Source of the DNA: Cymodocea nodosa
Taxonomy: Eukaryota > Streptophyta > Magnoliopsida > Alismatales > Cymodoceaceae
DNA length: 64,000 nucleotides
Assembly (NCBI GenBank): GCA_036874045.1
Contig: JAZBRI010000010.1
Coordinates: 1,818,001 to 1,882,000 of the forward strand
Reading direction: 5' to 3'
A model generated the notes under the pieces. It searched no databases, was not told the origin of the DNA, and was given only the letters and a program-made list of their open reading frames with translations. The position numbers and the translations under genes are program-made. This document shows, one piece after another, positions 36,984-64,000 of the stretch. The stretch's first letter is position 1. Each line of letters starts with the position of its first letter.

Positions 36984-39234
36984 TGTTTGGATCTCTAGTA
37001 TAGCACCAGAAAACTTGATTGGTTACCCAGCAACGTGCCAGAAAAACTTGGATTTGTTAACTTCTGTTTTTACTTAATTAATTTATCTTTATGCCTATAT
37101 CACTGAATTCCTTTTTAGAAGTAAACAAACAACCTTCCACACAAATTAGATATTAATTCCAATTTGTATTTTAACTGCAAGTGCACAATGTTTATTGTAT
37201 TAGTGTGCAAGTATAGGTCGATCCCATAGGAAATTGCTTAAGAATTGTGAACTGTTCCATTTTTAACAATCAAATTTATATATTCAATAAGCTCTCCGTT
37301 GAGTTATAGTTAACTCAATAGACTAAGTTCATTGAGTTATAGCTAACTCAACGGACTAACCTCGTAGACTTAAGTTAACTCTACGAGCCTGTCTTTCCTA
37401 TTTAATACTACTATTTACAAAGGAATTCAACCAACCATTGGGTGGTTCCACATATTGTAAATAACATCAATTAAGCTCTTTAATGTTAGTAAACACTAGA
37501 TTTATCATTAGACAATACTAATATTCAGATAATTCAAACAGTAACTATTAAAATCTTTAAGTCTTTTGAACGAACCAATTTCAATAAACTGTAAAACTAA
37601 AGCAAACATAAAACAATCACAACACTAACAAAGATAACATTAATCACGATATAAAACAAACAATACAATACCCAAATACAAAATACAAACACAGATAAGT
37701 TGTTTTTAGTATTTTTGTTTTGATATGAGCATGAAAATGGGCGAAAGGTGAAATGTAAAGTAATCTCAATCGACAGTAAATACTTCTGTCACTACATACG
37801 ACGCGATTACAGCATTGAAAATTAAACCACTTACAATTCTGTCTCCTCTCCTTATAGAATCACGAGTCCAGAATTGCAAAATGACCTCTTCTTCAATATA
37901 CAGGCATCAACCCGAAGCCAATGCTAGAAGTTTTACGATCTCTTAAGATATGAGTTGGCGCTTGGTGAAAATGGCTTCCCTTCCTGCGACGCGATCACTC
38001 CTCATAGTGGTTGTCAAGCACTGTGTTTGGCTCGAAATCGACCCGACATCAGGAAAGTATCATCACAGACCTCTGATAGTTGGTGATTATGGTGGTGGTG
38101 GAGTTGGTTGGTGTGGTACTTCAAAGAATTGTCGGCGTTGCCTGTAGAAAGTTCGGTGATCCTCCTCTGCACACATTGGCCACACCCATCGGCCACCCCC
38201 CCATGCTGCTTTTTTTCTTCTTTTCTTTTATATTTCTTCAGTGGTAACTACTTTTGCTTGAATGATCGGTTAGATTTCCTTCATTCATATCAATGACAAT
38301 GATTTCTTCTTCCTTCGACGAGTGAATTCCTGCGTGATACATGCGATCGTGGTTTTTTTTCTTCCAACTATTCTGTTCCTACAACCGCTACAATGACATA
38401 TTAGAAAATAAATGGTCTATGGAGTTACAGATAACTCAACGGACTTGCTTCGTTGATTTAACTATAAAACACGTGCATAAATTTAATTATCTGATGCTTA
38501 GCTGCATTTCGGATACTTACAAACTTAACTATCCGATGCCCAAATGCATTTCGGATAGTTACAGACTTAACTATCTGATACTCAAATGCATTTCGGATAG
38601 TTACAAATAACTCACTGATATATAACTTAAGTCAATCTTCCAAATCACGATACGTGTCATCAGTAGTTTTATAATAAAAAAATATTTCAGAGAGTTACAA
38701 GTCTAACTATCCGATGCCTAGATGCATTTTGGATAGTTAGAGATAACTCATCGAAAATCCACTTAAGTCATTCTTTCAGAACATGACACGTGTCGTCAAC
38801 AGTTTTATAATAAAAGGAGATTTCAAAGAGTTACACATATAACTATCTGATGCCCAACTGCAATTTCGGATAGTTAGAGATAACTCACCGAAAGTCCACT
38901 TAAGTCAAGCATCATGGTTTCGACACGTGTACTTGAGGAAATAATAAAATATTCTTTTAAAACATAACTATTTGGTACATGTTCGGTACGTTAAACATAA
39001 CTGTCTGAAATAATAAAAAATTTGAATACTTAAGAATTTCACAGCCTGCAATTTACCAACAGTTCAGAAATGCACTAAATTAACATTAATTCCTTGAAAT
39101 TAAGCAGATTCTTTCATTAAAGCATATAACAGTACACTTATAACAAAATAGCTTAATTCTCATATGATAAGCTAAATATTATGCAATTAACCATCATTTA
39201 ACCATTAATATTATGCACTTTTTCATTCTAAACA
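36984..39234 (-). mobile_element. Athila element A: 3' LTR, minus orientation
   Basis: The plus strand starts TGTTTGGATCTC, which reads GAGATCCAAACA on the minus strand as at the LTR end at 13201. It ends TTCTAAACA next to the polypurine tract. At 2251 bp it is the longest family LTR here. It carries two extra primer-site-like units (about 36995-37062), several GATGC...TTCGGATAGTTA repeats (38480-38900) and island words at 37290-37390. The copia-like U3 block is absent. The flank before it (36979-36983) is ATGAT, the candidate target duplication. Confidence 0.85.
38225..38232 (-). promoter_or_regulatory. TATA box of Athila A LTR
   Basis: TATAAAAG on the minus strand, in the position conserved among family LTRs. 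Confidence 0.5.
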
Positions 39235-39247
39235 CTCCCCCCATACC
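39235..39247 (-). other. Polypurine tract of Athila element A
   Basis: The minus strand reads GGTATGGGGGGAG directly before the LTR start TGTTTAG. The preceding word GGGACTAGCAAAATTTA is typical of sequence before the tract in this element group. Confidence 0.8.
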
Positions 39248-41252
39248 TAAATTTTGCTAGTCCCTTAGCAAACTAAGATCTAATTAATTGGTCTTTCTAA
39301 AAGTGCTAGAATTAATTCTTTCTTTTTTTCTTATGTTCAGCATAAGAACTTGTATTATTATATAGATATTTTGTATGTTTCATTAATCTATTTTAACATT
39401 GTTTTCTCCTCTTCAACCTGCAAATATACTTAGAATATATGCAAATTACATACAAAGTATATCATCATCACATAGGTATTAATTATATTATCGTTTGTTC
39501 TTCTTTTCATCATCTGTCATCCTGAATTTTCCAATAAGATTTCTAGAATAAATTTCTACAACATAGGAATCAAAATACAATCCAATTCAATATGATTAAG
39601 ACAAGTAGAATAAAGAATTGTATCTCCATTAAACAACTTCAAAAGTCTATTCTAAATTCATATTTCAACAATTTTAGATAACAGAAAATATACTCGATTC
39701 AAAAGATATCTGTATTTCACAAAACACTTGTATCTTTTCAGAACAGTATATGTATTTTTGAACTTTAAAAGTTAATTTGACAAGCTTGAATCATACAAGA
39801 GCTTTCTAATGTACCCATGTAACGAGCTTTCAGTCAACAATCCTAAATCTGATCAAGATCTTAGGTTGCTAGATTTCAAGAGTCCTTTTTCAGGTCAACA
39901 ATCCTTACATATCTATCTGCTCAAGTACAAAAGGCTCGTGATCAAACTAGTCAATAAACTCTTAGAGTTTTTTTTTTCTCTTTTTTTTTTTTCACATATT
40001 GTATATGTACGTATTTCATTAATACAAAAGCAATAAAACACCAATCTCATATAGTCCTACTTCTATCATTTACTGAAAATATGAATCCATAACAATAAGC
40101 TCATACTTTTTCTGTAGTTTAATAAGATCTACACATAAATCATTCTACAAGGTGCATTTACACCTACTATCAAGCATTGACTTCTATAAGAAATCTAGAG
40201 TTAACCGTGTTTGGGTGGGAGCAGAACCAAGATGGGTGATCACTTGGGAAGTTCTCGTGTAGTGTCTATGGGCAGTAGTATTGGCTTTGCTCAAGCATTA
40301 GCAAGTTGTAGCTGTGTACACCACTTACCAAAGTGGGCCTAATAAGGTCCCCTACAAGCTTTCGTCTCCTTGGATACTCCTAGTGTATACCAGGCCATTT
40401 GAGTGTCTGTTGAGACTCACATGTTATCACCACCGTGGATACTCTTGGTGTTCACCAGGTTGTTTGAGTGTCTAACGAGGACCCTTAAAAAAAAATAAAT
40501 AAATAAATAAATCATTCTGATTTCATTTTAAAATCGTGAAACTGTTAAACTCATGAAATTCAGAAAAAAGAATATAAGATATTATATCTAGATTTACATA
40601 AATATTAAATTCTATAGCATCTTATATAGCCTTCTAAATATAACATTCAAGCAGTTTCAGTTTATAAAAATTTTACAATCTCAATTATCGGATAGTTACA
40701 GCAAGTTCATAAAAAAAATTTCAATTTCCATAAACTTTCAGTACCATTTTAATTCCTTTAATTAACAAACTTACATGGTTGTTACTTTAATTACCTCCCC
40801 CCATACCTACATTTTGTGTTGTCCTCAATGTAAAAGATTTGACAATAAATACGATAATTGTAGCAGGTATGAATACAGTTTCGTTGATTTAGCACCTAAC
40901 TCAACAAATGATTTTAAATCTAAATTCAGGATAAGTAATCAGTTACATACCTTGTTTCGTTTGTATCTCCTTCTAAATATTCTGATTTTGATTCTGAAAA
41001 ACTTTTTATTCACAGATAAAAGCAGAATATATAACAAAATAACAGTTAACAAATATTTATAAATCATTGTCTTGTGTGGAACCTAGGCGCCTATGCCTTT
41101 GGTGGCTCACAAGCAAGCTAGTTGGTTTCCCAGCACAGACACCGACAAACTAGATTGATATTTTGTTTTTTTTTTATAAAATAAACTAAAACTAAAATTT
41201 TTCTAAAAGTAAATGCAGAAAACACACAACATTAAAAGTACAAAATCACAGC
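39248..41252 (-). other. Athila A spacer between F-box gene and polypurine tract
   Basis: No retroelement gene is seen. About 39245-40150 is the segment shared with the copia pol-env spacer. A retroposon with a 5S-like head interrupts it at 40151-40511. A second purine tract lies at about 40794-40807 (minus strand GGTATGGGGGGAGGTAA, preceded by CATTGAGGACAACAC). Element B has the same layout without the retroposon. Confidence 0.7.
40135..40518 (+). mobile_element. Retroposon with a 5S rRNA-derived head and (TAAA)n tail (SINE-like)
   Basis: The head, about 40151-40270, aligns along its whole length with plant 5S rRNA. A GGTGC start is followed by GAGTTAACCGTGTTTGGGTG (compare GAAGTTAAGCGTGCTTGGGC) and GATGGGTGATCACTTGGGAAG-type sequence (compare GATGGGTGACCTCCTGGGAAG). 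This covers the internal RNA polymerase III control region. A body of about 210 bp follows with a degenerate internal repeat (GGATACTC...TTTGAGTGTCT, twice), then an A/TAAA tail. ATAAATCATTCT flanks it on both sides (40135-40146, 40507-40518). Element B lacks it. A Cassandra-type LTR fragment is the alternative, but no TG...CA ends are visible. Confidence 0.65.
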
Positions 41253-42388
41253 TTAAGAACATGATTGAAAAGTAGACACAAATGGAATAAACGTGTCAAT
41301 CCAAGCAAACTTTTTAGGCATAATCCTTCTTGCTATTAATTCAGTTTTAATGCAGTTCGTGTTCCTTCTTAATTTGTAAACTTGCAATATATTATCAATG
41401 CTAAATACAAGTGTATTACCATTAATGAAATGAAATGCAAAAAGGGATCCTTTTCGGTTCCAGGATAATGTAGCAGTTTCTATTTCTACATCTATTTCAA
41501 TATATTCCTCTTCCCACTTCCATTCATTTATGTCTTTCATGATCCATATTTGAAATTTCATCAACTCATCCCACCATCTTATCAGACATAAAGTAGGATC
41601 ATCATATTTATTATACCACATCCCTATTTGAATTTTATCAAATTCTGCAGATGGTGGTTTAGCTATTTCTCTCGGTATAGGCAAAATTTCTATATATTCA
41701 TCATAACATCTATGCTTACTATGTATAAATCAGATCTAAATGCAACTGATATATTTGTGACTAGATATATATATCCATCAAGTATGACATGCATGCTGTT
41801 AATTAATGATTTCTGTCCTAGATATATCATAGTGTTTTCAGTCCAAGATCTATTCAGAAAATTATACACACTCAAGCATAAATCTTCATCCCAATTTCCT
41901 GTAGGTCTCTAATAATATAATTTTTCAAGAATGGTCAAATTTTTATCAGAAAATATTAAAGTCGACCCATAATTTTCAGTTGGTACTTCATATCTATTAG
42001 GTCTTCCTATATTTCATTCTTCTCTTGTGATAGGTTTTCTAATCAAAATATCAGGTAATAGAATTGCATACCTTGGTTTGGTCCTATATATAATTAATCC
42101 TTCATCCATCCCCATAATATGATCTATTCCTTCTAATGTATTGGGTGGAATTCTAGTAGTTTCTTCCATATTCAGATATTCATGGCTAATTGAACTACGA
42201 TTAAATGACTTCCATATGAATCCATCTCTAATCTTAGTCATTTTTGCAGCTTGTAGTCCATGAAAATATTTTTCTCTAACACAATCTTTAATTTCCTTTG
42301 ATACACAACACAACCTGCACAGATCTTTAGCTGACAAGTTACTTAATACTTCCCTTAGTGCATCCAGCGGTAATTGCATCAATTCCAT
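41253..42388 (-). pseudogene. F-box gene copy in Athila A (broken)
   Basis: From the ATG at 42388 the frame encodes an N-terminal F-box (LPLDALREVLSNLSAKDL) and a C-terminal F-box-associated region, as in element B. It is inactivated by two TGG-to-stop changes (near 42014 and 41911) and a one-base deletion near 41706, after which the frame resumes to the same C-terminus (FVSTFQSCS). The first 113 comparable residues differ from B at roughly 16 positions. F-box proteins are substrate adaptors of SCF ubiquitin ligases. The gene is intronless and lies about 190 bp downstream of the relocated gag, in the same orientation. Both copies end in the same stop. Confidence 0.85.
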
Positions 42389-42454
42389 TTGTTGATTCTA
42401 TATAACATAAACACAAAAATTTTAATAGAGACAAAAATTAACATAACTACTGCC

Positions 42455-42530
42455 CACCCTCGTGGAGTTAGGGCATAACTCAACGGACTAAGTTCGTTAA
42501 GTTAAGGACTAACTCTACGATACTATTAAC
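42455..42530. repeat. Inverted-repeat word island between gag and F-box (A)
   Basis: The island contains CCTCGTGGAGTTA, ATAACTCAACGGACTAAG, TTCGTTAAGTTA and TAACTCTACGA in succession. These can pair as stems of TAACTCAACG with CGTTGAGTTA. An island lies at the same joint in element B (56250-56310). Confidence 0.7.
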
Positions 42531-42576
42531 TACAAATAAACTTATATATATATATAGTTACTTTAGTTATATTGCT

Positions 42577-43860
42577 TCATTTAGCTACCCTCCCATAAGA
42601 GGTATCAATTTCATTAACAGTTCTATTGATAGGGTTAGACATTACTTGTATTGGCAATCCTCCAGTACGTCTAACTTCCATTGATTCCTTTTGTCTAAGC
42701 GATATGTTTGTATTCTGATTTTGAATTGCAGCATTTCCAAATACAAGATCCAAACGATTATTTAATTGTTGGATTATCTTTTCTAATTTCTTTATTCTAG
42801 ATCCTTATTCAACTAATGCTTCATAACTTATATTCTTCTCATTTACATTTTCTCCTCCTTGGAAATTATTGTTTCTCTAAGATAAATTTGGGTGATTTCT
42901 CCAATTAGGATTATAAGAATTTCCAAAGTTATCTTTCTTGTTTTTAGTATAAATAATATCTAGATCATTAATGTTTGCATTCTTTTCTGCTAGCTTTTGA
43001 TTTAATGATAACTCTTCTATTTTCTTTGTTAATTCAGTTAATTTCATTTCAAGCATAGTACTTGAATCTATTTCATGCATTCCTCTTGGCAATATTCTTT
43101 TATCTGCAATAGCTTCAACCGAGTTTTCCCATTGTGCAGCTCTTTTTGCAAAGTTTTCTAAATATGCCCATACTTCTTCACTACATAGTTTTAGAAATCC
43201 ATTTTGACAAATAGATTCTAATAAAGATTTTGTTGAAACATCTATGCCTTCATAAATTATGCCTATTAATTGTGCTTTATTCATTGCATGATGTAGACAT
43301 TGAGTCAGTAAATCTTTAATCTTTCAAAATATTTCCAAAATGATTCACCCTATTTTTGACTACACATTAATATTTCTTTTTTCTTTTTAATCATTTGATG
43401 TGTTGGATAATATTTTTCTAGAAAAACAGAGCAAAATTTAGTCCATGTAGAAATTGAATCAAGCGATAGAGTATATAATCATCTCTTAGCTGTGTCTTTT
43501 AAAGCAAAAGGGATATATCTAAGTTTAATAGCATCTATACTCATGTTCGACATTTTCATCATTTGACAAACTTTGTTAAATTCTCTAAGGAAATAATAGG
43601 CATCCTCTTTTTCTAATCCATGAAAATGTGGCAATTGACTAATATAATTAGATTTCAGTTCAAACCTATCTCCCTCAAAGTTTGGCAATCAAATACATGA
43701 AGGTTCATCAACTAATTCAGGGTATAGAATTTCTCCTAATGGTTTTTCTACTAGAGCAGTCATATCTACGTTCTCTTCTAAAGAAATGTTAGCTACACCC
43801 CAAAGGATTTCGTTAAAGTCCAGTTCAGAAAATGTTTCAGAACGCCTCTATGTTGAATAT
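42577..43860 (-). pseudogene. Relocated Athila Gag domain (A), 3' of integrase
   Basis: The minus-strand frame begins around NEILWGVANISLEENVD and contains FEGDRFELKSNYI, FHGLEKEDAYYFLREF, KLRYIPFALKDTAKR, a region around YYPTHQMIKKKKE and CQNGFLKLCSEEVW. It then gives GNSYNPNWRNHPNLSW and ends in a coiled-coil tail (RRVAK, stop at 42577). FHGL-x-x-E-D, FSL/FAL-x-D-x-A and YNPxWRNHPN-x-SW are hallmarks of Athila-type Gag. No zinc knuckle is inside; it sits in the 5' frame of this family instead. Normally this domain is the first thing after the primer site; here it follows integrase and the envelope-position ORF. Several stops and frameshifts break it. An F-box gene follows. Confidence 0.85.
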
Positions 43861-44079
43861 TCTTAGGTAAGTATTCTTACTAATCGTTTAGTGCTAAGAG
43901 AATGAGTCCATGTGCTCATAAATAAAATAGTAGATGATTAATTACATATCAGTCTGAAGCTTTCCATTCAATAAATATTTGTTGACGGATGAAGTTGAAT
44001 CAGCTGCTTCTCCTTCCAGTTCCCCAACACATTCTTCTTTCTTTCAAAAGTGCTGGTAACTCGTAAATAACATTCTGTT

Positions 44080-44091
44080 CTATATATATAA
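44080..44091 (-). promoter_or_regulatory. TATA-like box upstream of the relocated gag (A)
   Basis: The minus strand reads GCATTATATATATAGAAC, some 220 bp upstream of the gag frame. The equivalent in B (57888-57898) is a better TATATATATAAAAC. This suggests that downstream genes may have their own promoter. Confidence 0.35.
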
Positions 44092-44149
44092 TGCACATCC
44101 ATAAAGTAAATAAATCTTGTTGCAAGAACATGTCTTGTAACGTGTAGTG

Positions 44150-45697
44150 TGAAAGGACCTCTAGATTTTGATAATGCAAAAATCAATGTAAGGTTTTGAA
44201 TTGTATTTATCAGGTTTGGTCAGTACAGCAAAAAGATCAGAAGGTAGACAAATCAAAGCAGCAAACAGGTTGCAGTAAATCTCAGAATGTGCTGCTACAG
44301 AAAATCAGACAGTTAAGAAAGGATTGAATGATCAGAAAGTTAAGAAGTTAATTATCTGAAAGCTTAAAGGACTTTTCAGAAAGTTAGATAACTATTCGAG
44401 TTTTCTTTTCGAAGAGTTAGATAACTATTTGAGTTTTTCGGAGAGTTACAGGTATAACTTTTCAGAACTTAAGTCATCTTATTACACACGTGTAGAATGG
44501 AGAAGCCGTTAGTCAAAAGCTTAAAAGGAAAAATCGAAGAGTTAGATAACTATCCGAAATCTCGAAGAGAGTTTCAGTGAGTTACAGTTTAACTATCCGA
44601 AACTTAAGTCACTGAATTCCCGTGTAGAATTCCAGACAGAAGTTCATATAAGATTTCGGAGAGTTAGAAAGATAACTATCCGAACATTCAAGAGAGTTTC
44701 AGTGAGTTACAATTTAACTATCCGAAACTTAAGTCATTGAATTTCCCACGTGTAGAATTCCAGAGAGAAGCTCAAATAAGTTTTTGGAGAGTTAGAAAGA
44801 TAACTATCCGAAATCTTGAAGCATTTCGGTGAGTTACAGGGATAACCATCCGAAACTTCAGTCAGTCTTTTATGCACGTGCTAAATTAAAGCAATCGGAA
44901 AGTTAACGGAGGGTTACTATAGCCAACTATCCGATAGTTAAATAACTGTTCGGTAAGTTACAGTCTTAAGTATCTGATTGAATGACAGCTCATAGTATAT
45001 ATTCTAGAATCCTACATGGCAGAAAGGTTTAAGTGATCTTTCGGTGAGTTATAGATATTCTTCGGAGAGTCACACAGCTAACTACCCGAAAAGTTAAGAA
45101 AATCGAAAGGACATCTTGAAATAACTTTCTGAATGGTAACTTACCATATTTGGGACTGAAGTCTAATCAAGTACAGTAGAATACATCCGTTGGAAGAAAA
45201 TATGATCGTTACACATGTTTGGTATATATACAAGATACAGACAACGGATTTAGATAGCTTTTGCTCATATACATACTTACACCAAGCTCAACAGAAGAAA
45301 AGCTTTGGAGATCAAATCATCTTCAACGTTTACAAACTAAATTTCAGAAGCTCATCACGCACTCAACTCTGTTGTTCACAAGCTAGTGTTTACTAAAGTA
45401 CACGGATCAAAACATCAAAGAAAGGATTGATTGAAGCTTCGACAAGGAAGCTCAAGTGAATGGTTGGTTGTTTCTTACTTAAACCTTAAAGCAAGTGATT
45501 GTAAGTTTGCAAGAGTTTAGTGAAGCCCAAGTATCCCTTGGGGGTGAACTAGCCGTTAGTGGTGAACCACCTAAAAATCTCTATGTGAATTCTTTTATTG
45601 TGTGCTTACTATCTCTTTACATTAAACTACTTCTAAAAGGTTAAGAAACGAATTATTACCATTCACCCCCCCTCTAGTAAGCCTTAAGGTCCTAACA
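44150..45697 (+). mobile_element. Solo LTR of a copia-type element inserted in Athila A
   Basis: It starts TGAAAGGACCTCTAG and ends AGGTCCTAACA, 1548 bp. It has no internal element sequence and is flanked by TAGTG (44145-44149) and CAGTG (45698-45702), a 5-bp target duplication with one mismatch. Element B shows the uninterrupted site near 57955-57965 (CATCGTGGTTCTTG). The family is that of the LTR at 8084-9231. It is full of words such as AACTATCCGAA and GAGAGTTAGA that resemble the Athila U3 words. Confidence 0.9.
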
Positions 45698-46783: not shown

Positions 46784-49051
46784 TTAGCCTCTATTCCTAA
46801 GTTCATCTACTTCCTTCTAGAGTTTTTCTATTTGTTGCTCTAAGTGTTCTATCCTTTCTACAGCTCCAATAATGCCTCTAGAAGGTACAGATACTTTAGC
46901 TGCAGCATAATTTTTGTATTCTTTCACTGAAATGGTTCTTGATCTTATCCTTTTGGATGTCCATTTCGTGAAATCAATATAGTCTACCATCAATATAGGT
47001 ATCAAATCTCCATAAAATAATTTCTTCTTTGCAAACTTCATTTTGGATAGGAAGACTTGACACCAATTAACTTGAATTCTGTTCACAACTGCATAAGTGG
47101 CCCACTTGGCAAATTGACTCAGTTCAATGTCATGGCCCTGTCGTTGGTACACATTTTTAATCAAAATGTTAGCTATCATGTGTGCTTTACCATTTAAATG
47201 CTTCAGTCTATTTAATAATGGCACACCAGGATTGATAGCAAAATTGTCCTTGATTTCCTACTCTGTCCACTCAACGGTAGTTGTGCTTTCCAAAATTTCT
47301 TTTCCTTCATTCTTCAATCTAAAAATGTTGTGGAGAAGCTCTGGTGTTATCTGTACATCAGCCTCCTCCATGTTGGAAATTAATTGTCCTTCTTCTTCTC
47401 TTAAATTAGCATAAAAGCAGGGCACTAGATTTTCATATATTGCATGCCCTTTCTGTTGAGAAATAAATTGTAGTAGACCTTGGAACTCAAATAATTCCTT
47501 AATTACTTGCATTCCGTCCCAATTTACTGGTCTACTATATATGATATCATAACCCCTAATCTCTTGGTATTTATTATAAGCTTCCTAACTCCAAAATTAT
47601 ACTTCATTCAAAATTGTTGCTTCAGTCGGGTTAGGAATGTGACTTTGTTGTTCTAGAGGGGTTTGTTCTTGATCTTCCTCTTCCATAGGCGGAACTTAAA
47701 CTTGCTGAAAATGTTCTGCAGATTCCTGAATATTTGCTTTTGCTTTTGTTTGTGGTGGTGAGCCGGTAGAACTCTTCACTTTGTCTTGAAGTGTTTCATT
47801 AAGTTCAGTCGAATCTACAAAGTCATTTTTGTCCATATGGCTTTGTTCAGCTTCTTGTTCATTATCTGTTCTTTCTTCTTTCTCCTGACTACCAATCTAC
47901 ATTATCACTATTCTTTCTGATTCTTTGGCAGATTGGGATGGAGTCACGGGCAATTCAGTTTCTACCCTATTTTCTGTTTCTTCTTCTTGTACAGGCTACA
48001 AACTAATTCCAATCTGATTTTCTTCTTTTCTTTGCTCTTAAATTCCAGCTTGATTTTCTTCTTTTCTTTGCTCTTGCTGCTGCTACTCCTGCTCCACAGA
48101 ATCGAATAGCAGGTTCACCAAAATTGGCTCTACAGGCCTTGTTGATGTTGGTACTTTAGATTTAATCTCTTTTTGACATTCAAGCACTATCTCTTTTCCT
48201 TTCCTTCGTCTGATTAATTGTGTCTGGTCTTCCTCTTCTACTTCTGAGATTAAATCCATAAACAAAGGCTCTACACGCCTTTGAGCCACAGGTACTGGCT
48301 CTTCGTGTTTAATTTTTTCAATATTTGTTGGTCTCGAAGGACCAGCTTCAGCTTCTCCTCTTGCAGCAAATCTGACAATGGTTCATTGATGATGTTCAAC
48401 TTTAATTTTGTTTTGGGCTTTCAATTTTTCTGCAGCCCTCTTCTTGCAAAGTGCATCAACTACCAAGTGTATTTTAGCTACTACCACATCTTCTGGTTCT
48501 CCTTGATTTTTCCCAACTTGAACTAGTCCTTGAAATTTTCTTAATTCCTCTTCAATTGAAGGCCCCAACATTGCTGCTCGTGCCAACAGCCTGAATGGTG
48601 GAACTGAAGGTCCTAGCTGTTGTTCCTCAGGAACAGGTCTTTCAATAGTTGGCTCCTCTTGTTCTTCTTCTACTTGTTGCTGCCGCCTCATTTCACCCCT
48701 TGCACGACCAACAATGCGCCTTTTGAACCATAATATGACCTTGCATTGGATTAGCTGTAGGGCTACTTCGTTGTTTGGCCTAATTTTTCTTTCTTTACTA
48801 ACAGCAATTTCTGTTGCTACTTTGATTCTTATTTCCATTATCTGGGGTATTTGTATACCCAAATCTACTAAAACTCTTCTCAAGTCAAAAAGTTCAAATT
48901 CTACCTTATGTAGCTCTTTTTCTCTTGTCGTATTTCGAATTTTTTGTCGCGTGTGCAATTCCTCTAACTCTTTCAGAAATTCTGATGTGTCAACAGCATC
49001 TTCCCAAAACTCGGGCGTCATCTTCTTCATCATGGAATTACACAACGGCAT
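46784..49051 (-). pseudogene. Envelope-position ORF of Athila A ('putative plant transposon protein' type)
   Basis: One minus-strand frame of 756 codons runs from the ATG at 49051 to the TAA at 46784, with several in-frame stops and no obvious frameshift. Residues 1-120 are helical and charged (EFWEDAVDTSEFLKELEEL). The middle is acidic and Gln/Glu-rich. The C-terminal third holds a conserved globular part: IIYSRPVNWDGMQ, LFEFQGLLQF, PELLHNIFRLKNEG, KHLNGKAHMIANIL and KLFYGDLIPIL. It ends in a coiled coil (AVERIEHLEQQIEKL). It matches the ORF at 21529-23766 of the copia element. There is no signal peptide or clear membrane helix. It is the same type as the B copy at 58700. Its upstream region carries telo-box words (AAACCCTA) common in plant promoters. 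Function unknown. Confidence 0.75.
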
Positions 49052-55047: not shown

Positions 55048-56187
55048 TTAAGAACATGATTGAAAAGTAGAAACAAATGGAATAAATGTATCAATCCAAG
55101 CAAACTTTTTAGGCATAGTTCTTCTTGCTATTAATTCTGTTTTAATGCAGTTCTTGTTCCTTCTTAATTTGTAAACATGTAATATATTATAAATTCCAAA
55201 TACGAGTGTATTACCATTAATGATATGTAATGCATAAAGGGATCCTTTTTGGTTCCAAGGTAATGTAGCAGTTTCTATTTCTACATCTATTTCAATATAC
55301 TCCTCTTCCCACTTCCATTTATTTATATCTTCCATAATCCATATTTGAAATTTCATCAGTTCATCCCACCATCTTATCAGACATAAAGTAGGATCATCTT
55401 CTTCATTATACCACATTCCTATTTGAATTTCATTAAATTCTGCAGATGGTGGTTTAGCTATTTCACTTGGTACAGGTAAAATTTCTATATATTCATCATA
55501 ACTGTCTATGCTCACTATGTATAAATCAGATCCATATGCTAATGATATCTCCGTGACTAGATATATATATCCATCAAGTATGACATGTGTTTGGTTAATT
55601 AATGATTTCTGTCCAAGATATATCATAATATTTTCATTCCAAGATCTGTTCAGAAAATTATACACACTTAAGCGTAAATCTTCACCCCAATTTCTTGTAG
55701 GTCTCCAATAATATAATTTTTCAGGAATTGTAGAATTTTTATCAGAAAATATTAAAGCTGACCCACAATTTACAGTTGGTGCTTCAAATCTATTAGGTCT
55801 CCCTATATTCCATTCTTCTCCTGTTATAGGATTTCTTATCAAAATATCAGGTAATAATAAACTTACATACCTTGGTCTCGCCTTGTATATGATTAATCCT
55901 TCATCTATCCCCATAATATGATTTATTCCTTCTAATGTATTGGGTGAAATTCTAGTAGTTTCTTCCATATTCAGATATTCATGGCTAATTGAACTACGAT
56001 TAAATGACCTCCATATGAATCTATTTCTAATCTTAGTCATTTTTGCAGCTTGTAGTCTTTGAAAATATTTTTCTTCAATACAGTCTTTAATTTCCTTTGA
56101 TACATAACACAACCTACGCAGATCTTTAGCTGACAAGTTACTTAGTACTTCCCTTAGTAAATCCAACGGTAATTGCATCAATTCCAT
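55048..56187 (-). CDS. F-box protein carried inside Athila element B (uninterrupted)
   Basis: The intronless frame is 379 codons from the ATG at 56187 with no stop. Residues 5-45 form an F-box (LPLDLLREVLSNLSAKDLRRLCYVSK pattern), the Skp1-binding module of SCF ubiquitin ligases. Residues 60-330 resemble the plant F-box-associated region: GINHIMGIDEGLIIY, ILIRNPITGEEW, HVILDGYIYLV, LIRWWDELMKFQIWIM. Such regions bind the substrate, so a role in protein turnover is inferred from the family. It lies in retroelement orientation between the relocated gag and the polypurine tract. A T-rich stretch ending TTCTACAG lies 12 nt upstream of the ATG and looks like a splice acceptor. Element A holds a broken copy. 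Whether it is transcribed is unknown; the host parent gene is not in the window. Confidence 0.85.
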   Translation of the reverse strand: MELMQLPLDLLREVLSNLSAKDLRRLCYVSKEIKDCIEEKYFQRLQAAKMTKIRNRFIWRSFNRSSISHEYLNMEETTRISPNTLEGINHIMGIDEGLIIYKARPRYVSLLLPDILIRNPITGEEWNIGRPNRFEAPTVNCGSALIFSDKNSTIPEKLYYWRPTRNWGEDLRLSVYNFLNRSWNENIMIYLGQKSLINQTHVILDGYIYLVTEISLAYGSDLYIVSIDSYDEYIEILPVPSEIAKPPSAEFNEIQIGMWYNEEDDPTLCLIRWWDELMKFQIWIMEDINKWKWEEEYIEIDVEIETATLPWNQKGSLYALHIINGNTLVFGIYNILHVYKLRRNKNCIKTELIARRTMPKKFAWIDTFIPFVSTFQSCS

Positions 56188-56199
56188 TTGTCGATTCTG

Positions 56200-56215
56200 T
56201 AGAACACAAACAAAA
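56200..56215 (-). promoter_or_regulatory. Splice-acceptor-like site before the F-box start
   Basis: The minus strand reads CTACTAAA (branch-point-like), then TTTTTGTTTGTGTTCTACAG, then AATCGACAA and the ATG. Element A keeps the pyrimidine run and a TATAG end. This could allow a spliced subgenomic RNA for the F-box gene. It is supported by motif and conservation only. Confidence 0.4.
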
Positions 56216-56249
56216 ATTTAGTAGAGACAAAAATTAACATGATACTACA

Positions 56250-56310
56250 CACCCTCATGGAGTTAAGGCATAACTCAACGGACTAAGTTTGTTGAGTTAA
56301 AAATTAACTC
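56250..56310. repeat. Inverted-repeat word island between gag and F-box (B)
   Basis: The plus strand reads CTCATGGAGTTA, ATAACTCAACGGACTAAG, TTTGTTGAGTTA and TTAACTCTAC in order, matching the island at 42455-42530 of A. Confidence 0.7.
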
Positions 56311-56385
56311 TACAATACTATAAAAAAATAAAAAAAATAAAAAAATATATATATACATATAGATAGTTGCTTCAGATATGCTGCT

Positions 56386-57670
56386 TCATTCAGCTGCCCT
56401 CCTAGAAGAGGTATCAATTTCATTAACTGTTCTATTGACAGGATTAGGTATAGCTTGTATTGGCAATCCTCTAGTAGGTCTAACTTCCATTGGTTCCTTC
56501 TGTCTAAGTGATATATTTCTATTCTGATTTTGACTTGCAGCATTTCCAAATATAAATTCTAAACGATTGTTTACTTCTTGGATTATCTTTTCTAATTTCT
56601 CTATTCTAGCTCCTTGTTCAATTAATACTTCATAACTTATGTTCTTCTCATTTATATTTTCTCCTCCTTGGAAATTGTTGTTTCTCCAAGATAAATTCGG
56701 GTGATTTCTCCAATTAGGATGATAAGAATTTCCCAAGTTATCTCTCTAGTTTCTAGCATAAATAATATCTAAGTCATTTATGTTTGCATTCTTTTCTACT
56801 AGCTTTTGATTTAATGATAACTCCTCTATTTTCTTTGTTAATTCATTTAATTTCACCTCAAGCATAGTATTGGAATCTATTTCATGCATTCCTCTTGGCA
56901 ATATTCTTTTATCTACAATAGCTTCAACTGAATTTTCCCACTATGCAGTTCTTTTTGCAAAATTCTCTAAATATGCCCATGCTTCTTCACTACATAATTT
57001 TAAAAATCCATTTTGACAAGTAGATTCTAATAAAGATTTCGTTGAAACATCTATGCCTTCATAAATTATACCTATTAATTGTGCTCTACTCATTGCATGA
57101 TGTGGACATTAAGTCAGTAAATCTTTAAATCTTTCAAAATATTTCCAGAATGATTCACCCTATTTTTGGCTACACATTAATATTTCTTTCTTCTTTTTAA
57201 TCATTTGATGTGTTGGATAATATTTTTCCAGAAAAACAGAGCAAAATTCAGTCCATGTAGAAATTGAATTAGGTGACAGAGTATATAACTATCTCTTAGC
57301 TGTGTCTTTTAAAGAAAAAGGGATATATCTAAGTTTAATAGCATCTATACTCATGTTCGGCATTTTCATCATTTGACAAACTTCGTTAAATTCTCTAAGG
57401 AAATATTAGGCATCCTCTCTTTCTAATCCATGAAAATGTGGTAATTGACTGATATAATTAGATTTCAGTTCAAACATATCTCCCTCAAAGTTTGGCAATC
57501 GAATACATGAAGGTTCATCAACTAATTTAGGATACAGAATCACTCCTAATGGTTTTTCTATTGGAGCAACCATCTCTACGTTCTCTTTTAAAGAAAGGTT
57601 AGCTACACCCCAAAGAATTTCGTTAAAGTTCAGTTCAGAAAATTTTTCAGTACTCCTCTACAATGAAAAT
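56386..57670 (-). pseudogene. Relocated Athila Gag domain (B), 3' of integrase
   Basis: It has the same domain series as in A. FEGD, FHGLE, KLRYIPF and CQNGFLKLCSEEAW lead to GNSYHPNWRNHPNLSW and a coiled-coil tail (ARIEKLEKIIQEVNNRLEF) ending in RRAAE at the stop codon at 56386. In-frame stops occur before the last 116 residues (for example near 56748), so no full protein can be made. As in A, it lacks the zinc knuckle, which sits in the 5' frame at 63266. The matching order in two copies shows that the relocation predates their split. Confidence 0.85.
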
Positions 57671-58699
57671 TCCTAGGTAGGTGTTCTTACTAATCGTTTA
57701 GTGCTTAGAGAATGAGTCCATGTGCTCATAAATAAATAGCAGAAGATTAATTACATATTAGTCTGAAGATTTCCATTCTATAAATATTTGTTGTCGGATG
57801 AAGTTGAATCAGCTGCTTCTCCTTCCAGTTCCTCCAAAGCATTCTCCTTTCTTTTAAAAGTGCTAGTAACTCGTAAATAACATTCTGTTTTATATATATA
57901 CTGTGCATCCATAAAGTGAATAAATCTCATTGCAAGAACGTGGCTTGCAACATGCATCGTGGTTCTTGTTTATATAGGTACGTGTACCACTACTAATTTC
58001 AAATTTTGGTAGCTGCTAAACCGACGAAGTTTCGTTTGTGGTTAAAAGAATAACTGTTCTGCTTAATCCACGAACTAACCTCGTTGAGTTACAGAAAACT
58101 CAACAGAATACAGTCGGTTACTATTGCTAACTCCACGGACTAACTTAGTTGAGTTACAGATAACTCAACAGAGTGACTTTATATTATATTACTATCCTCG
58201 TGGAGTTACGGTTAACTCAACGAACTTACTTCGTTGAGTTAACACTTGGCAACATCTAAGTTTTACTCTCGTAAGTTTCTCTCTGTTCCTTTTTTTTTTT
58301 TTCATTCTGCTAACTGTAATAAAGTTAAATCTATGTCATTAATGCATCATTTTGATTAAAATTCATTTAAATCTAAATCTTATATAAAGATTTAACTCGT
58401 AGGTCATTTTATGTTATGCAAAATTTACATTTTACCTTATAACATGTAGAAATTTTTAAGCAGTTATCCTATCATTCCGCAAATTGTAAATCTATTACAT
58501 ATTCATTCATAAAGTTTCACAATAACATAATATTTAATAAATTCCTTTCATTTCACATCCAAAACACGTATGAAAATTGCATCTGAAAAATTTACATTCG
58601 TTAATATGAATCAATTACATTAAAAGTACATCATACAATTTTATACAATTTTACACAAGTAGACGAACAATACAATTTAATCTCTATGTCTATTTCTAA
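57671..58699 (-). other. Athila B spacer between the envelope-position ORF and gag
   Basis: No gene is seen. Word islands lie at 58072-58245, including three successive pairs of GTTGAGTTA and TAACTCAAC. A TATA box (minus strand TATATATAAA, 57888-57898) lies between the islands and gag. The site near 57960 is the empty counterpart of the solo LTR insertion in A. Confidence 0.65.
57888..57898 (-). promoter_or_regulatory. TATA box upstream of the relocated gag (B)
   Basis: The minus strand reads TATATATATAAAAC at the place corresponding to 44080-44091 in A. A leader of about 200 bp separates it from the gag frame. Confidence 0.4.
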
Positions 58700-60855
58700 T
58701 TAAAGCTCTAATTGATTAATCCTCTCTACTGCTCCTATAATTCCTCTAGAAGGTACAGCTAGTTCTGCAGCTACAAAATTTTTGTATTCTTTCACTGAAA
58801 TGGTTCTTGATCTGATCATTTTTTATGTCCATTTAGTGAAATTGATACAGTCCACCGTTAGTAGTGGAATCAAATCTCCATAAAATAATTTCTTCTTCAC
58901 TATTTTCAGCTTGGAGATAAAAACTACAGACCAATTTATTTGGATCTTATTTACAACTTCATATGTGGCCCATTTGACAAATTGACTTAATTCTATGTCA
59001 TGGCCCTATCGTTGATAAACATTCTTAATCAGAATGTTAGCTACCATGTGTGCTTTACCATTTAAATGCTTCAATCTGTTTAATAATGGCACACTAGGAT
59101 TGATAGCTAAACAATCCTTAATTTGTTGTTCAGTCCATTCAACTGCAGTTGTATCTTCCAAAATTTTTGTTCTTTCATTCTTTAAACCAAAAATGTTGTG
59201 GAGAAGCTCTGGTGTTATCTGTACATCAGCTTCCTCCACATTTGAAATTAATCCTCCTTCTCCTTCTCTCAAATTTGCATAGAAACAGGGCACTAAATTT
59301 TCATATACTGCATGCCCTCTTTCTTGAGATATAAATTGCAATAGACCTTGGAATTCAAATAATTCTTTGATTTCTTGCATTCCATCCCAATTTACTGGTT
59401 TACTGTAAATAATGTCGTAACCCCTTATTTCTTGATATTTGGTATAAGCTTCCTGACTACAAAAATGTACTTCATACAAAATTATTGTTTCAATCGGGTC
59501 AGGAAGGTGGCTTTGTTGCTCTAGAGGGGTTTGCTCTTGCTCTTCCTCTTCTATAGGCTGCATTTGAATATTTTCTATAGATTCCTAAATTTCTATTTTT
59601 GTTTGTGGTGGTGAGCTGGCAGAACTCTCCACTCTGTCTTGAATTCTATCCATAAATTGCTGAAGAGTTTTTTGTTCTTTAGTGGAATCTGTGAAATTAT
59701 TTTTGTCTAAATGGCTTCTTTCAGCCTCTTCATTTTCTGCTCTTTCTTTTTCCTCCTAACTACCAATCTGTTTTGTTACTGTTCTTTCTGATTCTGTAAC
59801 AGATTGGGATGGAGTCACGAGCAATTCAGTTTCTGCCCTAATTTCTGTTTCTTCTTGTACAGGCTGTAGACTAATTTCAGCCTGATTTTCTTCTTTTCTT
59901 TGCTCCTCCTCAGAATCGGATAGTAGGTTAAAAAAAATCTGCTCCATAGGCCCGGTAAAAATTGGTACTTCAGATTTAATTTCCTCATATTCAGGCACTT
60001 TTTCTTTTCCTTTCTTTTTTCTGATTAGTTGTGTCTATTCTTTCTCTTCATCTTCTGAAATTAAATCTACAAAAATAGGCTCTACAGGCCTTCGAGCCAC
60101 AAGTACTACCTCTTCCTGTTTAACTTTTTTTATAACTATTGGTCTCGAAGGACCAGCTTCATCTCCTTTTGTAGTAGGTTTGGCAGCAGTTCTGGCAGTA
60201 GCTTCGTGATGCTGTTCCAATTTGATTTTATATTGGGCTTTCAACTTTTCTACAGCCCTCTTTTTGTAAAGTGCATTAAACACTAGGTGTGCTTTGGCCA
60301 TTGCCAAATCTTCTGATTCTCCTTGGTTCTTCCCAACTTGAGCCAGTTCTGCAAATTCTCTTATCTCTTCTTCAGTCGAAGGCCCCATCATTTCTACACG
60401 TGCCAATGGCTTAAATGGTGGAACTAAAGATCAGGCTGCTGCTCCTCAAGAACGGGTCTTCCAGTAGTCGACTCCTCTTATCCTTCAGTTGCCTCTTGTT
60501 GTTCCTGCCGCCATATTTCCCAACTTCCTCAACCAGCAATGCGTTTCTTAAACCACAATCTGGCTTTACGTTGAATTAGCTCTAGGGCTACTTCATTGTT
60601 TGGCCGGATTTTTCTTTCTTTGCTAACTGCAATTTCAATTGCTACTCTGATTCGTGTCTCCATTATATGGGGTATTTGTATACCACAATCTACTAATATT
60701 TTTCTTAATCAAAAAAGTTCAGATTCTACCTTCTGTAACTCTTTTTCTCTCGTTGTATTTCTGATCTTCTACCTCGTGTGCCATTCTTCAGATTCCTTCA
60801 GAAACTATGCAGTGTCAACTGCCTCTTCCCAAAATTCAAGTGTCATCTTCCTCAT
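58700..60855 (-). pseudogene. Envelope-position ORF of Athila B
   Basis: The frame is collinear with 46784-49051 in A, from MRKMTLEFWEEAVDT at 60855 to a stop at 58700. The better-preserved part (59006-59563) gives FCSQEAYTKYQEI, IIYSKPVNWDGMQ, LFEFQGLLQF, PELLHNIFGLKNE and LNGKAHMVANIL. Stops and frameshifts lie mainly in the N-terminal half (for example around 60430 and 60710). The C-terminal coiled coil of A is shortened by a stop. It has no membrane helix or signal peptide that I can see. Homology to the copia ORF at 21529 is strongest in the C-terminal third. Confidence 0.75.
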
Positions 60856-61449
60856 CGTGGAGTTACATAACAGCACAGAATGGCTCTGATTTCTATTGTT
60901 CTAGATTCTAAATGATTTCCCAGATAATGCCCCCAAAACCCTAGGTTTTAGTTTAAATAAGCCCTAAGTTTAGGCGGGTAATTGGGTCATTTTTCGAACC
61001 AACTATTACTATTATATCCGAGGTCTTAGCTACAATACTCCGTTGAGTTATAGTTAACTCAATGGAATAAGCTCGTTGACTAACTCAAGACTCAACGGAG
61101 TAAGCTCGTTGAGTTAAGCGTAACTCAACGGACTCCCCGTACAAGCAAATATAATAATAAAAATATTACAGAGAATAGTTTTTCTTTTTTTTTTACCGGT
61201 TTAACTAATACTATGTTTCGATCAAACCTAAATATTTTTTTTATATTTTTTTTTTTTTTCGGTTGAACCGATACTATGTTTCGGTAAAACCAACATTTTT
61301 TTTCTGAAAATTAATATACAATTTTTATGTTCCGGTCATACCGATGGATCCAATCGGTTGAACCGCAACGATTTTTATGTTTTATATATATTTTTAATGT
61401 TTTTTTTATTTTTTTATTTATATATATAAACATAAAAACTGATTTCTTA
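60856..61449 (-). other. Athila B spacer between integrase and the envelope-position ORF
   Basis: It contains AAACCCTAGG (about 60937) near the ORF, an inverted-word island at about 61036-61130, and two copies of the ATACTATGTTTCGG unit (about 61208 and 61272) embedded in T-runs. The layout equals that of A (49052-49630). No coding frame is supported. Confidence 0.65.
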
Positions 61450-62010
61450 CTAAGTAAAGCTCGAGTAGTCCTCTACTCTAACTTCTTCTATAATTCCAAA
61501 GGAGCTTTTTGGTGCTTTCAGAATAGGTTTAAGTCTTTGTCCATTTACTTTAAATATATTCTGATTTTTAGGATTTTCAATTTCAATAGCTCCATCAGGA
61601 TAAACATTTCGAACTATGTAAGGTCCTGCCCATCTAGATTTCAATTTTCCTGGATGGTTATGGAGTCTAGCCATATAAAGTTATACTTCTTGTCCTATTT
61701 CAAAGCTTTTTGGAATAATTTTTCTATCATGCCAAAATTTAATATTTTCTTTTTCTCTTACAGTCTTTGAATAAGCTTCATTTCTAAATTCTTCTAATTC
61801 AATTAATTGCATTTTTCTATTTTCAGCAGCTTGATTTAAATTAGTGTTCAAAGTTTTTAATGCCCAATAAGCTTTATGTTCTATTTCAGTAGGTAAATGA
61901 CAACTTTTTCCATATACTAGCCTAAAAGGTGACATACCTAAGCTCGTTTTATAAGTTCTATAAGCCCAAAGTGCATCTATCAATCTATTAGCCCAATCTA
62001 TTCTAGTAGG
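61450..62010 (-). pseudogene. Athila B integrase C-terminal remnant
   Basis: It begins at [20 protein letters not shown], in the last part of the integrase core. It continues through [26 protein letters not shown] and [16 protein letters not shown] to the C-terminal tail [19 protein letters not shown]. It ends at a clean stop (61450). Only one stop, near 61681, separates the two open parts. The catalytic residues and all of RT and RNase H are missing, because the element jumps from protease to this point. Confidence 0.85.
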
Positions 62011-63266
62011 ATTTAAGCCTTCTAATCCTAAAGATGCAAATATATCACTTGGCATAACATTTATACCTGCACCTAAGTCTATTAAGGTTCTTTCTAGAAT
62101 GGTATTTCCTATGGTGCATGATATAACAGGGATTCTAGGATCAGATAACTTTTAGGAATTTGTGGTAGAAATAGGGAACTATTTTGCTTAGCTAAAAAGA
62201 CCTTTCTAAAAACTTTTCACTCTCTTTTCTTAGTACATCAATCCTTCAGAAATTTAGCACAAGGTGGCATTTTCTACAATAGATCTAACAAAGGAATGTT
62301 AACTTGTACTTTTTCAAAAATTTCTCTGATTTTTTCTTATTTTCCAGGAATTGTTTGTTGTAATCTTTCAGGATAGGGTGCTAAAGATTTTGATTTCCAA
62401 GACTCTTTTTCTTTCAGTTGATTTGTTTGATCATTTTTAGCTTCATTCGCAGATTCAGATTGTTCTTTAGTGATTTCTAGATTTTCAGCTATTACATTTT
62501 CATTATCATTTTGATTTTTACTCTTATCCACCTTCATATCATTTTCATTTTGAGTTCTTGGTGGTATATCAGTTCCAGATCTTAATGTTACACATACATC
62601 TTCCAGATTTTCGTTACTTTCATGATGTTTTTGTATATCATTTTTGTGATTATGATCTTCAATTGTTTTTAGTTTTAAAGTGCATTCTTTAAATTCTCTT
62701 GCATTAGTATTTTTTATTTGCTGTATATTTTGCAAATTATGCAGGTTTAAAACATTATAATTTTCATTGTCCTGTTGCATAACTTGTATTTTCATTGCAT
62801 TTTAGTCTAATGCTTTTAATTTTGTTTACAAATCATCTAATTTCATTGCATTCAATTTTTGATCAATTTTCTTTATGTTTTTTTTAGTTTCGTAAATTAT
62901 ATCCTTTTTAGGTTCTGAATATGCTTCCTTAAAGTTTAATTGGTTGACTTCTTATTGTTGACACACAAAGTATTCCAGTTTGTCCAGATTTTGCTTTATA
63001 CTATGCTCCAGTCTATCATAGCTATCCTAAACTTCAGTGTCTCTCATCATATTACACATTCTATACTTACCATCAATTGGGTAAACTATAGGATTCTCAT
63101 ACTCGGCTCTATTATATTGAGGATAATTCATTTGTTATTCATGAGATCTAACCATCTGTAAACGTCTCAATTTCAATCAATCAGAAATGTCGTGTCCTTC
63201 AGAATTGCAGAATTCACATATGCTAATTACAGGTTTCAGAAATCTTTGAGCATAAGCATATGCCAT
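62011..63266 (-). pseudogene. Athila B 5' frame: zinc knuckle, spacer, protease start
   Basis: From the ATG at 63266 the frame holds the CCHC knuckle region (CEFCNSEGHDISD, the next residue replaced by a stop). A charged coiled-coil stretch follows (62337-62795 is open for 152 residues), then VTLRSGTDIPPR. The protease start follows, with [29 protein letters not shown] and IFASLGLEG, interrupted by a one-base deletion near 62153. There is no Gag domain before the knuckle. The protease is cut after LGLEGL, where integrase sequence follows directly. Confidence 0.8.
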
Positions 63267-63376
63267 ATTCTCAATTATAGAAGAAAACACACTAACTCTG
63301 GCTATTAAAATGAAACATCTCTAATAGTTGCTTATATCTATTCAATTCAATTCAATTTAGTTCAATTCAATTCAAT

Positions 63377-63394
63377 TCCCCGGCAACGGCGCCA
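63377..63394 (-). other. Athila B primer binding site (tRNA-Asp type)
   Basis: The minus strand reads TGGCGCCGTTGCCGGGGA, 7 bp inside the LTR end at 63402, followed by GAATT repeats (63343-63377). Confidence 0.88.
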
Positions 63395-63401
63395 TAAAAC
63401 T

Positions 63402-64000
63402 TGTTTGGGTTTTCCCAGCACTACACTAGAAAAACTTGGATTTGTTACTTCTGTTTTTACTTAGTTAATTTATATTCATGCCTATTCTTTCTTTTAGAAG
63501 TAAACAAACAACCTTTAATAAAATTTAGATATTAATTCCAATTTGTACTTTAACTGCAAGTGCACAGTGTCTATTGTATTAGTGTGCAAGTACAAGTCGA
63601 TCCCACAGGGAATTGCTGACGAACTTGAGAACTATTTGCTTATTAAAAATCAAATTTATATATTCAATAAGCTCTCCGTTGAATTACAACTAACTCAATG
63701 GACTAAGTTCGTTGAGTTATGGATAACTCAACGAACTAACCTCGTGGACTTAAGTTAACTCCACGAGCCTGACTTTTCTTTCTAATACTGCTATTTACAA
63801 AGGAATTCGGCCAACCATTAGGCGATTCCACAAGTTGTAAATAACATCAATTAAGCTCTTTAATGCTAGTTAACATTGGATTTATCATTAAGCAATACTA
63901 ACATTCAGATAATTCAAACAGTAACCATTAAAATCTTTAAGTCTTTTGAACGAACCAATTTCAGTAAACTGTAAAACTAAAATAAACATAAAACAATCAC
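63402..64000 (-). mobile_element. Athila element B: 5' LTR (partial, runs off the window)
   Basis: The plus strand starts TGTTTGGGTTTTCCCAGC, as at 51240, and stays collinear with 51240-51838 to the end of the window. I count about 18 mismatches in some 599 bp (about 3 percent), all but one of them transitions. Confidence 0.92.

What the first reader, a model, noticed from the sequence alone, without database searches (positions are those of the whole stretch)
36984..63402. Athila-type family with Gag split in two: zinc knuckle in front of Pol, matrix/capsid-like domain behind integrase
Four separate 5' ends (5331, 13369, 28838, 63266) start with a CCHC knuckle about 85-130 bp after the primer site and have no Gag domain there. 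In elements A and B the FHGL...YNPxWRNHPN Gag domain lies 3' of integrase and the envelope-position ORF (42577-43860, 56386-57670). Athila elements normally have this domain first. Two copies with the same order show that the rearranged form was itself copied. Gag would then need its own RNA or promoter, or be supplied in trans.
Basis: partly seen in the sequence, partly recalled or inferred. Interest (0 to 1): 0.9.

Follow-up and report, generated by a model that had tools for sequence, protein, structure and literature searches.

The report
Jumping gene with capsid gene misplaced
A plant retrotransposon family carries its capsid (gag) gene near the wrong end, inside an intron next to a captured F-box gene, and many copies look like re-inserted spliced RNAs that lost gag.

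Summary
A and B are copies of an Athila-like Ty3/gypsy family with the order LTR–PBS–CCHC knuckle–PR–RT–RH–IN–ORF2–gag–F-box–LTR. Four further insertion events in the same genome have target-site duplications; three of them carry gag. Gag lies 3' of pol in 15 of 15 copies whose neighbouring genes were read. 17 of 18 LTR–PBS junctions start with the knuckle; none starts with gag.

New point: gag sits in a GT–AG intron of about 1.55 kb. Exon 1 (65 codons) continues in frame into the F-box exon. The exact exon–exon junction occurs at 187 places (reversed-pattern control 0). Junction copies are not one clade (AU p 0.00015, 20 copies), and the midpoint-rooted tree has gag-bearing A at its base. So spliced genomic RNA was probably reverse-transcribed repeatedly, leaving gag-less copies.

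Best model: intron-retaining RNA encodes Gag, spliced RNA encodes F-box, and Pol is made apart from Gag with its own knuckle. Intron removal rests on DNA footprints; Gag translation and F-box function are inferred. No RNA data were available, and the number of unspliced copies could not be counted.

The parts
63402..64000 (-). Element B, 3' part of its 5' LTR (continues beyond the window; its first ~1.1 kb is missing)
   Evidence: 97.0% identical to 51240-51838 over 599 bp; L029
63378..63394 (-). B primer binding site TGGCGCCGTTGCCGGGG
   Evidence: sequence; tRNA-Asp type as recalled and as stated for Calypso/Diaspora in PMC1142308 passages
62391..63266 (-). B 5' ORF: ATG, zinc knuckle, spacer to LRSG (start of the NC-PR-RT-RH-IN frame)
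61453..62387 (-). B protease start joined to integrase end (stretch between them deleted)
58694..60894 (-). B ORF2 (envelope position; weak PF20167 match, E 7e-4, below cut-off)
57759..57953 (-). B exon 1: 65-codon frame that joins the F-box frame when the intron is removed (B's donor GT itself is mutated)
56197..57758 (-). B intron (1562 nt) that holds gag
   Evidence: precisely absent from EL1, EL2, C11 and 187 junction places in all
56386..57729 (-). B gag (matrix/capsid-like domain, YHPNWRNHPN region, coiled coil; no knuckle)
   Evidence: PF03732 in the intact relative
55048..56196 (-). B F-box exon (open)
   Evidence: PF00646 E 7.9e-9
51240..53326 (-). B 3' LTR, 2087 bp, TGTTT...AAACA; inserted in A's RNase H
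50867..51239 (-). A, RNase H part next to the B insertion
49634..50863 (-). A integrase (H2C2, rve, C-terminal part)
   Evidence: PF17921 3.8e-12, PF00665 1.9e-15
46820..49069 (-). A ORF2
44150..45697 (-). solo LTR of another family inside A (not part of the family; explains the LTR-like sequence before A's gag)
   Evidence: TGTTAGG...CTTTCA, target duplication CACTG/CACTA, absent in B
42577..43919 (-). A gag inside the intron 43949-42398
41253..42397 (-). A F-box exon
   Evidence: PF00646 E 9.8e-12
36984..39236 (-). A 3' LTR (ends approximate)
28641..28868 (-). element D, knuckle-first 5' end
13348..13577 (+). element C, knuckle-first 5' end
5134..5370 (-). element E, knuckle-first 5' end

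Best explanation
This is an Athila-like Ty3/gypsy LTR retrotransposon family in which Gag has been split and moved. The 5' frame starts with the CCHC knuckle and runs through PR-RT-RH-IN. The matrix/capsid part is a separate, knuckle-less ORF behind ORF2, just before a captured F-box gene. gag lies inside a GT-AG intron between a 65-codon exon 1 and the F-box exon. Intron-retaining RNA would supply Gag (its ATG stands 17 nt behind the stop of the exon-1 frame); splicing removes gag and fuses exon 1 to the F-box protein. Spliced full-length RNA was also reverse-transcribed and inserted, repeatedly, giving gag-less copies that can only move with Gag from others. Pol, made without Gag, would be packaged through its own knuckle and RNA. 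Shown: order, its transposition as a unit, precise GT-AG loss, its recurrence on the tree used. Inferred: translation of Gag from unspliced RNA, trans-use of Gag, RNA-mediated Pol packaging, F-box function.
For: Order and TSDs in full-length copies (CATTG, ATCCT, GCTTG, GGGGC/GGGGT). 17 of 18 LTR-PBS junctions knuckle-first. Gag 3' of pol in 15 of 15 copies with readable neighbours. PF03732 7.8e-19. EL1, EL2 and the C11 element lack exactly ACTG|GTATGT...ACAG|AATCGAC. Three other deletions in the same families have 4-9 nt microhomology instead. Junction pattern at 187 places, 68 exact, control 0. Donor GT in 12 of 14 copies, acceptor AG in 10 of 10 minus one, that is 9 of 10, where the motif was found. 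Exon 1 in frame with the F-box; 444-codon open fused frame in EL2. One clade of junction copies rejected, AU p 0.00015, 20 rows. Gag dN/dS 0.27-0.34 between diverged subfamilies, frame controls 0.49-0.61 and 0.88-1.04; third-position excess.
Against: No RNA or protein data. The donor GT is mutated in A and B, and the acceptor motif was not found in L084-L086 at 5 mismatches or fewer. Among recent copies dN/dS does not separate gag, F-box or pol from frame controls (gag 0.47 vs 0.46 and 0.79; F-box 0.66 vs 0.47 and 0.80; pol 0.74 vs 0.29 and 0.62), and L083 gives no better value in frame than in frame +1. Most copies carry stops. How ribosomes reach a gag ORF several kb behind pol is not shown. 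The tree is midpoint-rooted and star-like, and 7 of 27 rows were dropped for poor alignment. The number of unspliced copies could not be counted (and later: busy).
Confidence: 0.8

Rival explanations
1. gag has a promoter of its own in the ORF2-gag spacer; the intron only concerns the F-box transcript. The gag mRNA would start near the TATA-like motif about 230 nt before its ATG.
For: TATA-like motifs and a 33-bp palindromic module (also in the LTR) lie before ORF2, gag and F-box. The module's core is enriched in the window: 121 near-matches vs 17-35 in 10 simulated sequences.
Against: Motif matches are not evidence of function; the TATA-like motif is not well kept in the diverged copies. The gag-less junction copies EL1/EL2 are full-length elements, so at least some splicing happens on LTR-driven RNA.
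Confidence: 0.25
2. The downstream Gag is a passenger; the family is moved by Gag of canonical relatives in trans.
For: Gag-less copies exist in number and one clade of six sampled junction copies multiplied. Many gag copies carry stops.
Against: gag is kept in 15 copies over subfamilies with dS about 0.2, with dN/dS 0.27-0.34 below frame controls; copies with an uninterrupted frame exist.
Confidence: 0.15
3. Polarity reversed: elements without gag are ancestral and gag was inserted into the exon-1/F-box gene with splice sites at its ends.
For: Clades of junction copies also sit near the base of the trees (s_L073, s_L076).
Against: Midpoint-rooted at gag-bearing A; junction copies do not form one clade (AU p 0.00015) and neither do gag copies (p 0.00044), so precise losses are needed either way.
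Confidence: 0.06
4. Nested-insertion artefact: Gag in A and B belongs to a separate element inserted behind pol.
For: A has an LTR-like stretch right before gag.
Against: That stretch is a later solo LTR with its own target duplication, absent in B; full-length elements with own TSDs carry the same order.
Confidence: 0.01

Closest known systems
Athila/Calypso/Diaspora lineage (Ty3/gypsy, OTA)
   Same: PBS of the tRNA-Asp type a few nt after the LTR, PR-RT-RH-IN order, extra ORF behind IN, CX2CX4HX4C knuckle, Gag of PF03732 type (PMC1142308 passages; PMC6317226 passages).
   Different: In those papers gag comes first, fused or next to pol; here the knuckle alone is first and the rest of Gag lies behind ORF2 in an intron, followed by an F-box gene.
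Ogre and EVADE/BARE: plant LTR elements with introns or a spliced gag RNA
   Same: Splicing of element RNA sets which protein is made (PMC12786077 passages).
   Different: There gag is in front and is exonic; here gag is in the intron and the spliced RNA lacks it.
Retand and other elements with extra 3' ORFs, and gag-less members
   Same: Extra ORFs between pol and the 3' LTR; some clusters without GAG (PMC11963269 passages).
   Different: No gag in that region is mentioned in the passages seen; no F-box (0 occurrences of the term there).
Foamy viruses (recalled, no call)
   Same: Pol made apart from Gag, Gag without Cys-His boxes, Pol packaged through RNA.
   Different: There Pol comes from the spliced RNA and gag is first; here the order is the reverse.

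Membership tests
Ty3/gypsy LTR retrotransposon | PR-RT-RH-IN order in one frame | tested here: met
   (RVT_1 1.2e-29, RT_RNaseH 6e-25, H2C2 1.3e-12, rve 7.2e-16)
Ty3/gypsy LTR retrotransposon | LTR pair, PBS, 5-bp target duplication | tested here: met
   EL5's duplication has one mismatch
Ty3/gypsy LTR retrotransposon | GAG first (GAG-PROT-RT-RH-INT, 8453 elements in PMC6317226, passage seen) | tested here: not met
   0 of 18 LTR-PBS junctions have Gag; Gag 3' of pol in 15 of 15
Athila lineage | RT/RH/INT phylogenetic placement | not tested
   no reference plant polyproteins at hand
Athila lineage | PBS of tRNA-Asp type near the LTR end | tested here: met
   TGGCGCCGTTGCCGGGG, 7 nt after the LTR; tRNA identity recalled / from PMC1142308 passages
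Athila lineage | Athila ORF-1 (PF03078) or related extra ORF | tested here: inconclusive
   no PF03078; PF20167 only below cut-off, none
Athila lineage | gag-pol in canonical order | tested here: not met
   as above; hence filed as Athila-like only
Spliced LTR element (Ogre/EVADE type) | GT-AG intron removed from element RNA | tested here: met
   DNA footprints only; RNA not available
Spliced LTR element (Ogre/EVADE type) | spliced RNA detected | not testable with these tools
   needs RNA reads

The most novel reading that the evidence does not exclude
An LTR retrotransposon that uses one intron as a switch: unspliced RNA makes Gag (particles), spliced RNA makes an F-box protein that could recruit the host's SCF ubiquitin ligase, perhaps against silencing factors, while NC-Pol is made apart from Gag and packaged through RNA. 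Each time the spliced RNA is packaged and copied, a gag-less parasite that still carries pol and F-box is born, so the element seeds its own non-autonomous competitors.
Probability: 0.4. Interest if true: 0.92.

Novelty: new variant of a known kind. Interest (0 to 1): 0.82.

Why it matters
Gag-first is treated as a rule of LTR retrotransposon anatomy (all 8453 Ty3/gypsy polyproteins of PMC6317226 were classed as GAG-PROT-RT-RH-INT, passage seen). A family that multiplied with gag 3' of pol, in an intron, shows that Gag and Pol can be uncoupled and that their ratio can be left to splicing. It gives a direct genomic record of splicing (187 junction places), of how gag-less parasites arise, and a candidate F-box effector carried by a plant element. 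Domain-order pipelines would call such elements defective.

Tried and rejected
Splice donor in the knuckle ORF: GTAAGT occurs in 1 of 4 copies only; dropped. Short intron ending at a gag acceptor: suggested by an in-frame stop shared by the 6 copies first compared, but three more copies have no stop there and the matching junction was found in 0 of the sequences searched; dropped. LTR relic between ORF2 and gag in A: a solo LTR of another family. Spliced removal of pol: the pol deletions in L026, L040 and the one in L050 have 4-9 nt microhomology, not GT-AG ends. dN/dS among recent copies: uninformative, frame controls as low or lower, also for pol. Related sequences elsewhere: F-box 0 hits, Gag one 91-aa fragment P0001 from a 511-bp ENA contig, 90% identity over 45% of the query, viral contigs none, PDB by sequence nothing of use. 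Species of the genome not identified. Uncounted: L022 holds a 31-residue gag-like fragment (61% identity) beside an LTR without PBS and with no other gene in 3 kb; it is not among the 15.

Papers: no gag 3' of pol and no F-box in an Athila element was seen in ten searches; listings were seen for all, passages for PMC7264820, PMC11963269, PMC1142308, PMC6317226, PMC12786077, PMC11728184. Wright and Voytas 2002 is not held. Subscription papers and preprints are not in the library.
Full report
WHAT IS THERE. The window is position 1818001-1882000 of contig C10 of a 374.6-Mb genome in 28 contigs; the species was not identified. A, B, D and E lie on the minus strand, C on the plus strand. B (51240 to beyond 64000) has a 3' LTR of 2087 bp, TGTTT...AAACA, and a 5' LTR part 97.0% identical to it over 599 bp. 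Directly behind the end of B's 3' LTR stands the RNase H of A. Right of the window, L029 has B's truncated 5' LTR, then PR/RT pieces, spacer, knuckle and an LTR in the order expected for A's 5' half. So B was inserted into A, and A too is knuckle-first. B itself lacks the stretch from within PR to within IN.

The knuckle frame starts at the ATG behind the PBS in four window copies. Downstream Gag of A and B is real: the window pieces gave no gag match in Pfam, but an uninterrupted relative gives PF03732 at 7.8e-19 and Ty3_capsid at 0.0035, below its cut-off.

THE FAMILY IN THE GENOME. The LTR query gave 40 long matches. Four insertion events have complete LTR pairs and target duplications: EL1/EL2 (CATTG; same flanks, so one insertion in a duplicated segment), EL3 (ATCCT), EL4 (GCTTG), EL5 (GGGGC/GGGGT). 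LTR pairs are 93.4-96.0% identical. Each has knuckle, spacer, PR, RT, RH, IN, ORF2, F-box in that order; EL3, EL4 and EL5 have gag between ORF2 and F-box, EL1/EL2 do not. Of the 40 LTR matches 18 have a PBS next to them (up to 4 substitutions in 25 bases): 17 go on with the knuckle, one (L028) with neither knuckle nor gag, none with gag (the window's B counted among the 17). Gag was seen with neighbouring genes in 15 copies: with ORF2 before and F-box behind in nine (A, B, EL3, EL4, EL5, L028/L063, L052/L064, L040/L056, L026/L062), with ORF2 only in two damaged copies (L058, L059), and with exon 1 before and F-box behind in four taken from along the list of 150 gag matches (L083-L086). A gag protein search scored 150 of 5197 candidates, 87-100% identical, so these are samples of a large family.

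GAG IS IN AN INTRON. EL1 and EL2 differ from EL3 by loss of exactly the stretch between ACTG|GTATGT and TTACAG|AATCGAC. The C11 element (L061/L051), at another insertion site, has the same junction (its 3' flank was not found, so its target duplication is untested). The intron is 1517-1562 nt in six copies, with a pyrimidine-rich end and a TACTAAA-like branch site. The donor GT is kept in 12 of 14 copies (mutated in A and B), the acceptor AG in 9 of 10 where the motif was found; in L084-L086 it was not found at five or fewer substitutions. The gag ATG stands 29 nt (30 in A) into the intron. Exon 1 has a 65-codon frame that, after splicing, runs into the F-box frame; in EL1 it is open through the junction, and in EL2 444 codons are open, beginning just behind a stop in codon 3 of that frame. 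Genome-wide the junction pattern with up to 2 mismatches in 28 occurs at 187 places, 68 of them exact; the reversed pattern occurs at none. Three other deletions in the family have 4-9 nt of microhomology at their ends, so ordinary deletion looks different here.

RECURRENCE AND POLARITY. Sixteen junction copies were fetched and joined in a tree of the F-box exon with EL1, EL2, C11 and eight gag-bearing copies. With all 27 rows the label needs 7 changes, no fewer than shuffled labels (311 of 500 as low), and long branches disturb it. After dropping seven rows with poor similarity or many gaps (L067, L068, L069, L070, L074, L075, L080), the label needs 4 changes, well-supported branches force at least 2, and holding the junction copies together is rejected (AU p 0.00015; gag-bearing copies together p 0.00044). 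Midpoint rooting puts gag-bearing A at the base, with L064 (gag-bearing) and L076 (junction) next. So gag in the intron is most likely old and was lost by splicing more than once. Six junction copies form a supported clade (100/98), which means that a gag-less lineage multiplied. The tree is shallow and star-like; the number of events is uncertain.

SELECTION. Between A and B dN/dS is 0.40 for gag, 0.41 for F-box, 0.17 for ORF2, with gag frame controls 0.55 and 1.08. Among recent copies the controls are as low or lower, even for pol, so that test says nothing. Between more diverged subfamilies (EL4-type against L084-L086) gag gives 0.27-0.34 against 0.49-0.61 and 0.88-1.04 in the other frames, with an excess at third positions such as 34/23/55; against L083 and B the true frame is no lower than frame +1. 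This favours a gag that worked after its move, moderately.

HOW IT MAY WORK. Inferred: from full-length or internal RNA, intron retention allows Gag and splicing allows the exon-1/F-box protein. Pol carries the only knuckle, so it could enter particles by binding RNA. Gag-less copies with pol and F-box need Gag from others; copies with gag but without pol exist too (L026/L062, L040/L056). The F-box protein would join an SCF complex; a role against silencing is only an idea, prompted by recalled viral F-box suppressors.

AGAINST WHAT IS KNOWN. PMC6317226 (passages) gives GAG-PROT-RT-RH-INT for its 8453 Ty3/gypsy polyproteins, with GAG not reliably found in 159. PMC12786077 (passages) names Ogre and EVADE as plant LTR elements with introns. 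None of ten searches listed a paper with gag 3' of pol or an F-box gene in such an element, in an open-access library only.

Noticed in passing
window 21469-23529: Long ORF set on the + strand with an ORF2-like protein (about 34% identical to A/B ORF2), behind a block (20219-21039) similar to the 3' non-coding end of A and B; similar ORFs at 85-89% in L057 and L060: a second, related family.
   Followed up: partly
window 15881-19925: Ty1/copia-like polyprotein (integrase, RT, RNase H look) that interrupts element C's RT.
   Followed up: no
window 49203-49335, 56271-56310, 58083-58241, 61042-61134 and in the LTRs: 33-bp module with palindromic core GTTGAGTTA/TAACTCAAC in the LTR and before ORF2, gag and F-box; 121 near-matches in the window against 17-35 in 10 simulations.
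   Followed up: partly
window 45973-46251 and 6745-7018: About 280-bp stretch, 85% identical, inserted in A's spacer and in E's LTR: probably a small mobile element.
   Followed up: no
G000 C3:15.03-15.14 Mb (L009-L012, L030, L031): EL1 and EL2 share flanks and target duplication, so a segment holding the element was duplicated.
   Followed up: partly
L026/L062 and L040/L056: Two copies with knuckle, ORF2, gag and F-box but pol deleted at 4- and 9-nt microhomologies: the mirror image of the gag-less copies.
   Followed up: partly
window 31999-32047: Pure GGTC repeat, about 12 copies.
   Followed up: no
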